DNA from: Candidatus Terraquivivens tikiterensis | GTDB taxonomy: Archaea > Thermoproteota > Nitrososphaeria_A > Caldarchaeales > Wolframiiraptoraceae | Reading direction: 5' to 3' | Assembly: GCA_003056285.1 (NCBI GenBank) | Contig: NDWU01000011.1 | Coordinates: forward strand, 1-52,561 | Length of the DNA stretch: 52,561 nucleotides | Shown here: piece after piece, positions 1 to 3,035 of the stretch | Numbering within the stretch: position 1 is the stretch's first letter | Layout of the letters: each line of letters opens with the position of its first letter | The notes under the pieces: model-generated | What the model saw: the letters and a program-made list of their open reading frames with translations, nothing else | Told to the model about the DNA's origin: nothing | Databases searched by the model: none | Made by a program: the position numbers and the translations under genes

Positions 1-1131
1 CTATCCGGAGGGGCTTTTTATAACATAAGGGAGTTGAAGCGTCATAATCGGGGAATAAAGCTTGAGACGTTAAGGAAGGTATGTCAGGAAAGCTCCATGG
101 ATTGGGAGAAGGTCTCGGATAGGATAAGGAGCGTAGGCTACAAGGAGAGGATAATCCTTAGAAGGCGGAGACTAACAGCCCAGCACGCATACTTGCTGGG
201 TTTATTGTACTCTACAGGTCGTGTGGATATGAAGAAGAACTCTATAGCTTTTACGAACGCTTCCAGAAAGCTGCTTGGCCATGTAAAAACCGTGTACAAA
301 AAGCTCTTCGAAAATTCGAGGCTGCGTGAATACGTAAGGGGGTTCGGCTTAAGGGTTTGTGGGGGAGAGAAGGAGGTCATCGTCCTCGAGGCATACAACC
401 CAGTAATGAAGAAAATGTACGAGGATTTGGTATTGAACCATTTCGGACTTCCGCTAAATCTTGGATGGCTTAAGAGGAGCATCGTCTCAGGATTTCTCGC
501 GGGCATGCTCGACGGCAACGGCTTCATAAACCTGGGTGGCCGTAGCCCGGAGATGGGATTCGTTCTAAAAAACTTTGAGCATGCTAAGATGATGCTGCTC
601 CTCCTAAGGAATCTAGGGGTGCTCGGCTGGTTGGTCAAAACGAAAGACGGCGGTCCTTTCAGGGTAGTTGTGAGGTCCTATAGAAGCTGTAAGAGCCTGT
701 GCAAGCTCTTGTACCCATATTCTTTTACGAAGCGGAAAAAGCTCAGAATTCTCTTAGAAAAAATAAAAAAGAGGGTAGATAAGGGCATGGGCCTCGACGA
801 GAAGCCCCCATCATTCTTCTACACGTTGCTAAGCAAAATAATGGTAGAGGACAGTCTGCCGAGCTTCGATGCCCATTATCCGATTATGTTAGAAAGATAC
901 GAAATGCTTTCAAGAAACCCTGGCACAGCCCAGGCTCTTAATACCGTGAACGTTTCATCCGGGTGCGCCCAAGGCGATCTTTTGCTTTATGGTCTGAGGG
1001 TGCTATCGGATTGCGAGCTAGTACCAGAAAGCATCCGCGAGATAGAGTATTTAGATTACGATGGCCTCGTCTACGACGTTACGCTGGAGAGGGCCCATAA
1101 CTTCCTGGCCAACGGAATATTGGTTAAGAAC
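1..1131 (+). mobile_element. Intein (C-terminal part) with degenerate LAGLIDADG endonuclease
   Basis: The splicing end is clear: block F reads VYDVTLERAHNFLANGI (with the block F His) and block G reads LVKN followed by Cys, so the junction is after Asn at 1129-1131 and the +1 residue is Cys at 1132. The usual penultimate His is Lys. Two LAGLIDADG-like motifs are visible: LLGLLYSTG at 193-219 and LAGMLDGNG at 496-522. In a working enzyme the eighth position of each is an acid; here they are Thr and Asn. The nuclease is therefore probably inactive while splicing residues persist. The N-terminal splicing Cys/Ser and block B lie left of the window. The intein interrupts a cysteine-rich stretch 37 residues before the cluster motif. 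Confidence 0.88.
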
Positions 1132-1920
1132 TGCTGCGCCGCATGGTTCTGTCCTGCCGGTACAGGCTCTGGGTATCCTAAGTACGCATGCAGGAATGGG
1201 CCCGAGCACGGGTACTACAACTTAGCGATATTCTTCTATGGGTGCAACTTCGATTGCTTGTTCTGCCAAAACTGGAGCCATAAAGAGATAAGCACCTCCC
1301 CGCAAGTTACTGTAGAGGAGCTTGTCAGGGTTACCTTGGGGAACGACAGGATAACCTGCTGGTGCTTCTTCGGGGGTTCCCCAGAACCCCATCTGCCGTT
1401 CGCCATAAACGCTTCAAGGAAAATTCTCGAGTCGTTAAAAGGGAGAAGGGTCATGAGGGTATGCTTCGAGTGGAACGGCTGCGGCAACGAAGGGCTTGTC
1501 AAAAGGTGCGGTGAGCTGGCGTTCGTCAGCGGAGGGAACATAAAGTTTGACCTGAAGGCCTTTGACCCAACGCTTAGCCTAGCCCTAAGCGGCGTCAAGA
1601 ACGATAGGGCATACAGAAACTTCAGCATGCTTTTTAACGAGTTTTACATGGAAAGAAGGGAGTTGCCCGTCATTACCGCCACTACGCTCCTCGTCCCAGG
1701 ATACGTTGACGAGAAGGAGGTCGAGGGCATCGCCAGATTCATATCGGAGCACGACGAAAACATACCCTACAGCCTGCTAATATTCCATCCTGATTACATG
1801 ATGCGCGACCTGACGATAACCCCTGTATCCCAGGTAAAGAAGTGCCTGGCTGCTGCAAAGAAGTACCTGAAAAACGTTAACCTAGGGAACGTGCACCTCC
1901 TAAGCCTCGCGCCACCGTAG
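1..1920 (+). CDS. Intein-split radical SAM enzyme (PflA-activase-like), 5' part missing
   Basis: The reading frame is open from base 1, so the gene enters from the left edge; the TTG at 34 is not a real start. Codons up to base 1131 are intein, and the remaining 262 residues (1132-1920) are the C-extein. The extein shows the radical SAM cluster motif CX3CX2C (GCNFDCLFCQNW, Cys codons at 1243, 1255 and 1264), preceded by further cysteines (CC, FCP, YAC), and a later FDLKAF segment typical of pyruvate-formate-lyase-activase-like enzymes. Members of this group use S-adenosylmethionine and a [4Fe-4S] cluster to make a 5'-deoxyadenosyl radical; the substrate here is unknown. It could be the radical SAM partner of the AmmeMemoRadiSam set, since a MEMO gene lies at 20805, but that is inference. 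The gene ends 5 bases from the convergent radical SAM gene at 1926. Confidence 0.85.
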   Translation, partial: LSGGAFYNIRELKRHNRGIKLETLRKVCQESSMDWEKVSDRIRSVGYKERIILRRRRLTAQHAYLLGLLYSTGRVDMKKNSIAFTNASRKLLGHVKTVYKKLFENSRLREYVRGFGLRVCGGEKEVIVLEAYNPVMKKMYEDLVLNHFGLPLNLGWLKRSIVSGFLAGMLDGNGFINLGGRSPEMGFVLKNFEHAKMMLLLLRNLGVLGWLVKTKDGGPFRVVVRSYRSCKSLCKLLYPYSFTKRKKLRILLEKIKKRVDKGMGLDEKPPSFFYTLLSKIMVEDSLPSFDAHYPIMLERYEMLSRNPGTAQALNTVNVSSGCAQGDLLLYGLRVLSDCELVPESIREIEYLDYDGLVYDVTLERAHNFLANGILVKNCCAAWFCPAGTGSGYPKYACRNGPEHGYYNLAIFFYGCNFDCLFCQNWSHKEISTSPQVTVEELVRVTLGNDRITCWCFFGGSPEPHLPFAINASRKILESLKGRRVMRVCFEWNGCGNEGLVKRCGELAFVSGGNIKFDLKAFDPTLSLALSGVKNDRAYRNFSMLFNEFYMERRELPVITATTLLVPGYVDEKEVEGIARFISEHDENIPYSLLIFHPDYMMRDLTITPVSQVKKCLAAAKKYLKNVNLGNVHLLSLAPP

Positions 1921-1925
1921 CCGTT

Positions 1926-3035
1926 TTAGGAGACTGGTCTGTATAGGATGTTCAGCGAGTCGGCGAATGCGTAGGCCTCCTCCATCTCTTGGATTGTCGG
2001 CCTGCGCGCTATGTCACGGTATTCGTCTGGCCTCTTGGCGACGATGTACTCTGGCCTGTACTGCTCCATTATGTTCACTAAAGCCCTTGGGCAGTTCTCT
2101 GATATCCACTTCAAGACGGGTTTGGTGCAACAGTCAATATGGTTCGGAAGAACTAGGTGCCTGATTATCATGTCGCCAAACTCGTGCGCAATCTTGTGGT
2201 TCCTTGAGACGATTTCAAAGTAGCGCGAAATTTTCGAGAGCCTCATGGCGCAGTCGTCGTTACCGTACTTGAAGTCCGGCAACCATATGTCTATGACGTC
2301 GACCAGGAGCTTCATGCTCTCTAGCGACATATACATGTTGCTATTCCAGAGCATCGGAACGTTCGTCTCGAGGTGCTTCATGCCTTCGAGTATCGTGTGG
2401 ATGTTTGGTGTGGGCTCGCCTCCGACGAAGTTTATGTTTAGGGCACCAGTGGCCCTTAGGTCCTTCATTATGAGCGCCAACCTTCTTCCGTCGACCTCCA
2501 CGCCGTTAAGCGGGTCCTGCGAGATGTCCCAATTCTGACAGAACACGCACCTGAAAGTGCAGCCGGAGAAGAATATCGTTCCTGAGCCTCCATAGCCTAC
2601 CAGGGGAGGTTCTTCCCCAAAGTGGTGGAACCACGTTGAGACCCTAGATTTGCTGTCAACCCTGCAGGCACCAAGCTTTTTTGCCTCGTACCTATCCACC
2701 CTACACCTCCACTCGCAAAAACGGCAACTTTTTAGCATCCTTTTAGCGATCTCAACCTTTAAGTCAAGATAGCTCGTGGTAGGCGGCTTAAGCTCATCCA
2801 ACAGCATCCTATCAGCCTTTATATCTTTCAGGACCTCGTTGAACGCCCTGCTGAGCCTTTCATGCTCTTCCCAAAGCCTTTCATCCGAATCGGACCCTAT
2901 GCTTACTTCGCAAGGAATCCTTTTCGCGATGAGGAACTTTGCGGGCTTCAGGTCGCTCATGACGCTATAGTACCATCTAAGCCTCTCCCTAACCTCACGG
3001 TCCTGCCACAGCGACGTTGCGAACAAGCGCCTCAT
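1926..3035 (-). CDS. Radical SAM protein, PflA-activase-like (COG1313 type)
   Basis: A complete 369-residue protein. The cluster motif CX3CX2C appears as GCTFRCVFCQNW in the middle, with a second cysteine group about 50 residues earlier (CRFCEWRC, then GAC) that in this family can bind an extra cluster or metal. A NFVGGEPTPN segment after the cluster is the SAM-binding GGEP motif. The N-terminal ~100 residues are a helical, charged extension. The family makes a 5'-deoxyadenosyl radical and often activates or modifies a partner protein; the target is unknown. It faces the intein-containing radical SAM gene tail to tail with 5 bases between stops. The ATG at 3035 is the first good start. Confidence 0.8.
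   Translation of the reverse strand: MRRLFATSLWQDREVRERLRWYYSVMSDLKPAKFLIAKRIPCEVSIGSDSDERLWEEHERLSRAFNEVLKDIKADRMLLDELKPPTTSYLDLKVEIAKRMLKSCRFCEWRCRVDRYEAKKLGACRVDSKSRVSTWFHHFGEEPPLVGYGGSGTIFFSGCTFRCVFCQNWDISQDPLNGVEVDGRRLALIMKDLRATGALNINFVGGEPTPNIHTILEGMKHLETNVPMLWNSNMYMSLESMKLLVDVIDIWLPDFKYGNDDCAMRLSKISRYFEIVSRNHKIAHEFGDMIIRHLVLPNHIDCCTKPVLKWISENCPRALVNIMEQYRPEYIVAKRPDEYRDIARRPTIQEMEEAYAFADSLNILYRPVS

What the first reader, a model, noticed from the sequence alone, without database searches (positions are those of the whole stretch)
1..1131. Intein with dead homing motifs in a radical SAM enzyme
Splicing residues are kept (block F His, final Asn, +1 Cys; the penultimate His is Lys), but both LAGLIDADG motifs have lost the catalytic acid (LLGLLYSTG, LAGMLDGNG). 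This would be an intein that no longer spreads but must still splice for an Fe-S enzyme to form. I know of no intein described at this site, but I cannot search.
Basis: partly seen in the sequence, partly recalled or inferred. Interest (0 to 1): 0.68.

Follow-up and report, generated by a model that had tools for sequence, protein, structure and literature searches.

The report
Homing-dead intein in radical SAM enzyme
A self-splicing protein insert in an archaeal radical SAM enzyme has lost exactly the two amino acids its DNA-cutting part needs to spread, while relatives at the same site in other archaea are intact and have recently moved; it is a clear case of a known stage in the life of these elements.

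Summary
Window 1-1131 encodes the C-terminal 377 residues of an intein; the C-extein (1132-1920) is a radical SAM protein. The window begins at a contig end. The first ~145 intein residues and the N-extein are in no other contig, so blocks A/B cannot be seen in this genome. Two Hecatellales MAGs carry a full 527-residue intein at the same site (DPHVTN|CC) with blocks A and B and both LAGLIDADG aspartates. Tree support for grouping these with the window intein is 97-99%. Those two inteins are 97% identical in DNA (dS 0.08) while their exteins are 72-76% identical (dS 1.1-1.3), so that allele has moved recently. Of 14 positions identical in all ten compared relatives, the window intein departs at two: the catalytic Asp of motif 1 (D to T) and of motif 2 (D to N). 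The penultimate Lys is shared with the intact relatives and is not decay. Five congeners have the empty site; no class member among 43 others has this intein. Best reading: a class 1 intein that still splices but can no longer home. This is a known category (Pho VMA intein) at an apparently undescribed site. Splicing is inferred, not shown.

The parts
1..1131 (+). C-terminal 377 codons of the intein; about 145-150 N-terminal codons lie beyond the contig end
   Evidence: Open frame; Pfam and NCBIfam intein models; alignment to same-site 527-aa inteins, where window residue 1 aligns with L022 intein residue 146
1..138 (+). Remnant of the HTH-like segment between the N-terminal splicing half and the nuclease, cut by the contig end
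   Evidence: Aligned to L022 intein residues 146-195, where Pfam HTH_3 hits 132-188
193..219 (+). Nuclease motif 1 (block C), LLGLLYSTG; catalytic Asp replaced by Thr72 (codon 214-216)
   Evidence: Asp in all 10 compared inteins, Thr only in the window; column aligns with the Asp of YLIADG in active TliVMA 7qss
496..522 (+). Nuclease motif 2 (block E), LAGMLDGNG; catalytic Asp replaced by Asn173 (codon 517-519)
   Evidence: Asp in all 10 compared inteins; column aligns with the Asp of YIVCDG in TliVMA 7qss
1069..1116 (+). Splicing block F, VYDVTLERAHNFLANG, His366 kept
   Evidence: Matches block F of all relatives; Y-D and His identical in all 10
1117..1131 (+). Splicing block G, ILVKN; last residue Asn377, penultimate Lys376
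   Evidence: The two full-length same-site inteins end IIVKN as well
1132..1920 (+). C-extein beginning at Cys+1 (CCAAWFCPAG): radical SAM enzyme with CX3CX2C at 1243-1266
   Evidence: Pfam Radical_SAM; empty-site orthologues DPH(V/I)TN|CC(A/S)AWFCPAG, 87-89% identical in the C-extein, in five congeners

Best explanation
This is a class 1 intein with a nested two-motif LAGLIDADG homing endonuclease, inserted at a conserved site (DPHVTN|CC) between the N-terminal Cys-rich segment and the radical SAM core of an archaeal radical SAM enzyme that resembles, but scores below the cut-offs of, the AmmeMemoRadiSam and glycyl-radical-activase families. The precursor is made as one chain. The intein is expected to excise itself using Cys1 (inferred, off the contig), block F His, Asn377 and Cys+1, joining the N-extein to the radical SAM core. 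The nuclease has lost both metal-binding aspartates (D to T, D to N), so it cannot cut empty alleles and the intein can no longer home by itself. The same insertion in Hecatellales (Bathyarchaeia) still has both acids and has recently moved horizontally. The window copy is therefore a homing-dead but splicing-constrained allele, in the degeneration phase of the homing cycle. Shown by sequence: anatomy, loss of the acids, same-site intact relatives, their recent transfer. Inferred: splicing activity, lack of nuclease activity, and the N-terminal half in this genome.
For: Domain models. Same-site full-length inteins with blocks A/B and both Asp. Window and Hecatellales inteins form one clade with 97-99% support. 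L022 and L023 inteins are 97.2% identical in DNA, exteins 72-76%; intein dS 0.077 against extein dS 1.13-1.27, HEN omega about 0.25. Of 14 columns identical in all 10 other inteins, the window departs at exactly the two catalytic Asp. Profile alignment to TliVMA and PI-PkoII chains. Empty site in five congeners and other relatives. The frame is open throughout, and block F/G is 22/35 identical to L022 against 75/200 in the HEN. Precedent: PhoVMA lacks both Asp and does not cut (PMC8966425).
Against: The first intein residue, block A, block B and the N-extein of this gene are not in the assembly, so the copy could be truncated or split. Apart from the two acids the nuclease domain shows no excess decay: branch lengths are equal, 0.92 and 0.92, and the domain stays basic, pI 10.4. 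The inactivation may be recent, or the fold may be kept for another reason. No expression or splicing data exist. The AlphaFold model was uninformative (pLDDT 38.5).
Confidence: 0.83

Rival explanations
1. The gene is a broken remnant: the N-terminal half is missing or disrupted, so neither splicing nor the enzyme works.
For: No N-extein or intein N-terminus is found in the other 38 contigs of a 97% complete assembly.
Against: The break coincides exactly with a contig end. The frame is open for 639 codons, block F/G residues are kept, and the C-extein is 87-89% identical to intact congeners. All five congeners keep the enzyme.
Confidence: 0.08
2. Split intein: the N-terminal half is encoded elsewhere and the enzyme forms by trans-splicing.
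For: The N-half is absent from this contig.
Against: No N-half is found anywhere in the assembly. Both same-site relatives are contiguous. The break lies in the linker/HTH region at a contig end.
Confidence: 0.02
3. The nuclease is catalytically dead but the domain is retained under selection, for DNA binding or to support splicing or its control.
For: The only two positions changed among those identical in all relatives are the metal-binding acids. The rest of the domain evolves no faster than in the intact lineage and stays strongly basic.
Against: Recent inactivation explains the same pattern. Branch lengths are near saturation, and the experimentally studied dead homologue PhoVMA showed no DNA binding.
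Confidence: 0.06
4. The loss of the acids is a sequencing or assembly error.
For: The genome is a 39-contig assembly and the intein sits at a contig end.
Against: Asp to Asn (AAC) needs at least one base change and Asp to Thr (ACA) at least two, at exactly the two catalytic codons, in an otherwise intact frame. Errors would not target those columns.
Confidence: 0.01

Closest known systems
Same-site inteins of Candidatus Hecatellales MAGs (QMXD01000009.1, NJEB01000077.1; L022, L023)
   Same: Same host gene, same insertion point DPHVTN|CC, same VKN|C ending, about 36% identity over the shared intein region, single clade
   Different: Both nuclease aspartates present, blocks A and B visible, evidence of recent horizontal movement; AT-rich (29% GC) against 48% in the window
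Pyrococcus horikoshii VMA intein (PhoVMA)
   Same: Intein with a nested LAGLIDADG domain that lacks the active-site aspartates in blocks C and E (PMC8966425)
   Different: Different host gene; block E helix truncated and acidic nuclease (pI 5.45 in the paper), whereas the window domain is full length and basic
Inteins in other radical SAM enzymes: P. abyssi MoaA; Tes (NCBIfam NF045703; L045 here)
   Same: Intein interrupting a radical SAM protein
   Different: Different enzymes and insertion sites; the Tes-like intein found here keeps both Asp
HdrA, Cbf5, ATP synthase B and MCM inteins of related archaea (L042-L051)
   Same: Same architecture and length (about 530-555 aa), 23-29% identical to L022
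   Different: Other host genes and sites; catalytic Asp present in all those in A3, although one MCM intein (L051) outside A3 has N at motif 2

Membership tests
Class 1 intein | Block F with conserved His, C-terminal Asn, nucleophile (Cys/Ser/Thr) at +1 | tested here: met
   His366, Asn377, Cys+1 present; TIGR01443 above cut-off
Class 1 intein | Cys/Ser at residue 1 and block B TxxH | tested here: inconclusive
   Beyond the contig end and not found elsewhere; present in same-site relatives as CVVGETKVIL and TPDHEVL
Class 1 intein | Empty site in orthologues exactly at the junctions | tested here: met
   DPH(V/I)TN|CC(A/S)AWFCPAG in congeners; at the C-junction the window reads VKN|CCAAWFCPAG. 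The N-junction is seen only in L022/L023.
Class 1 intein | Protein splicing | not testable with these tools
   Needs expression
LAGLIDADG homing endonuclease (domain) | Two LAGLIDADG motifs in a homologous domain | tested here: met
   Pfam LAGLIDADG_3, two stretches; family profile matches PI-PkoII, TliVMA and I-DmoI chains
Active LAGLIDADG homing endonuclease | Metal-binding acid at the end of each motif | tested here: not met
   T72 and N173 in place of Asp
Mini-intein | Endonuclease domain absent | tested here: not met
   Nuclease domain of about 214 residues still present
AmmeMemoRadiSam radical SAM enzyme (host protein) | TIGR04337 above curated cut-off (220 bits) | tested here: not met
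   47.5 bits for the window frame, 57.5 for the empty congener

The most novel reading that the evidence does not exclude
The nuclease domain lost only its catalytic acids yet is kept intact and basic because it now serves the host, for example as a DNA-binding or redox-sensitive brake on splicing at a Cys-Cys junction of an Fe-S enzyme.
Probability: 0.05. Interest if true: 0.6.

Novelty: new member of a known kind. Interest (0 to 1): 0.32.

Why it matters
It gives a matched pair at one insertion site: a recently mobile, apparently intact allele in Hecatellales and a homing-dead allele in another archaeal class, with empty sites in five congeners of the latter. Such pairs make the degeneration step of the homing cycle directly testable. 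This one also suggests that the nuclease active site can be lost before visible decay of the rest of the domain. The insertion site in this radical SAM family appears undescribed: no paper was found in the held library, which lacks most subscription journals.

Tried and rejected
Looked for the missing N-terminal half elsewhere in the assembly with the L022 protein and a congener N-extein: only other radical SAM genes and other inteins matched. Tried to locate the neighbouring contig through conserved upstream genes: the genes upstream differ even among congeners, so there is no anchor. Searched viral contigs with A1: none. AlphaFold on A1: too shallow, pLDDT 38.5, so no fold search was run; structural correspondence was taken from profile alignment to PDB chains instead. 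Considered penultimate Lys as decay: rejected, because the intact relatives share it. Considered accelerated decay of the nuclease: not seen in branch lengths, although divergence is near saturation. Considered very recent acquisition from the AT-rich Hecatellales copies: composition is closer to the host (GC 48% against 53% for the window; codon score inside the host range at its low end). Searches of other phylum and class sets found related inteins only at other sites. Paper searches for inteins with Bathyarchaeota or tetraether synthase returned nothing.

Full report
What is there. The window starts at base 1 of contig C3 of a 1.54-Mb, 39-contig archaeal genome. From base 1 a 639-codon frame runs to 1920. 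Its first 377 codons are intein and the rest is a radical SAM protein. Block F (VYDVTLERAHNFLANG, 1069-1116), block G (ILVKN, 1117-1131) and Cys+1 (1132-1134) are present. The two nuclease motifs read LLGLLYSTG (193-219) and LAGMLDGNG (496-522).

The missing half. The start of the gene lies off the contig. A search of the whole assembly with the L022 protein, and with the N-extein of a congener, found only other radical SAM genes and other inteins. Cys1 and blocks A and B therefore cannot be verified in this genome.

Same-site relatives. A scan of genome contigs returned two Candidatus Hecatellales MAGs with full-length 527-residue inteins in the same gene. They begin CVVGETKVIL, contain TPDHEVL, LMGLIY(T/A)DG and ISGLIDGDG, and end IIVKN|CCAAWFCPAG. 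Orthologues without intein, including all five congeners, read DPH(V/I)TN|CC(A/S)AWFCPAGTG. No other member of the 44-genome class has the window intein at E <= 1e-8. Among 173 of 398 sampled genomes of the phylum with the C-extein at E <= 1e-60, the listed open frames other than the window's are no longer than 438 aa (the weakest matches were not printed). In the 257 genomes of the Hecatellales class only those two have it; the other matches are in other genes.

The Hecatellales allele is mobile. Its intein DNA is 97.2% identical between the two MAGs while the exteins are 72% and 76%. The dS values are 0.077 for the intein and 1.27 and 1.13 for the exteins, and the nuclease domain has omega of about 0.25. 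That is the signature of recent transfer of the intein alone.

The window allele has lost homing. In an 11-sequence alignment, 14 positions covered by the window are identical in all ten other inteins. The window departs at two, L022 positions 222 and 327, the Asp of each motif. A profile of the alignment finds TliVMA (7qss), PI-PkoII (2cw7), PI-PfuI (1dq3) and I-DmoI, and the printed alignments place the two columns on the Asp of the motif D-G pairs in TliVMA. That these Asp carry the metal in LAGLIDADG enzymes, and that their loss inactivates the nuclease, is established knowledge of the family; the PhoVMA intein, which lacks both, neither cut nor bound its site (PMC8966425).

Tempo. The window and Hecatellales inteins are one clade (support 97-99). 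In the nuclease domain their branches are equal (0.92 each), so the rest of the domain has not visibly decayed, with the caution that such branches are near saturation. The domain is full length and basic (pI 10.4). The Asp to ACA change needs at least two substitutions. Base composition is close to the host and unlike the Hecatellales copies, so the window copy is not a fresh arrival from them.

Splicing. The penultimate Lys is common to the apparently active allele, and other relatives have Ser there, so it does not argue against splicing. The C-extein holds the CX3CX2C cluster and the N-extein of congeners an upstream Cys-rich segment, so the enzyme needs ligation to be whole. This is inference; no splicing was measured.

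Verdict. The finding is a genuine homing-dead intein, a known category, at an insertion site for which I found no description. The informative part is the pairing with mobile same-site relatives.

Noticed in passing
L085 (G000:C1:147500-151500): The same genome has an intein in a gene that looks like NADH dehydrogenase subunit B (by eye), 385 aa, with splicing blocks and an HTH but no LAGLIDADG match; the region between is of odd composition (G+C up to 0.69), as if the nuclease were eroded.
   Followed up: partly
L086 (G000:C38:37500-42500): RtcB intein in the same genome with one recognisable nuclease motif (LLGYFTGDG).
   Followed up: partly
L022 2512-4092 and L023 2512-4092: Inteins 97% identical in DNA inside exteins 72-76% identical: a clean case of recent intein transfer between two Hecatellales MAGs.
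   Followed up: yes
L042, L043, L044, L045, L046, L048: Related inteins in genes that look like HdrA, Cbf5, ATP synthase subunit B and Tes in related archaea, all with the same architecture of about 530-555 aa.
   Followed up: partly
window 1926-3035 (-): A second radical SAM gene lies tail to tail with the intein-bearing one and is conserved there in all five congeners, whereas the genes upstream differ.
   Followed up: no
G025:C2:1819-2610, G229:C6:36123-36899 and others: Several radical SAM homologues are reported with one TAG inside the match; whether this is the gene's end or a read-through codon was not settled.
   Followed up: no
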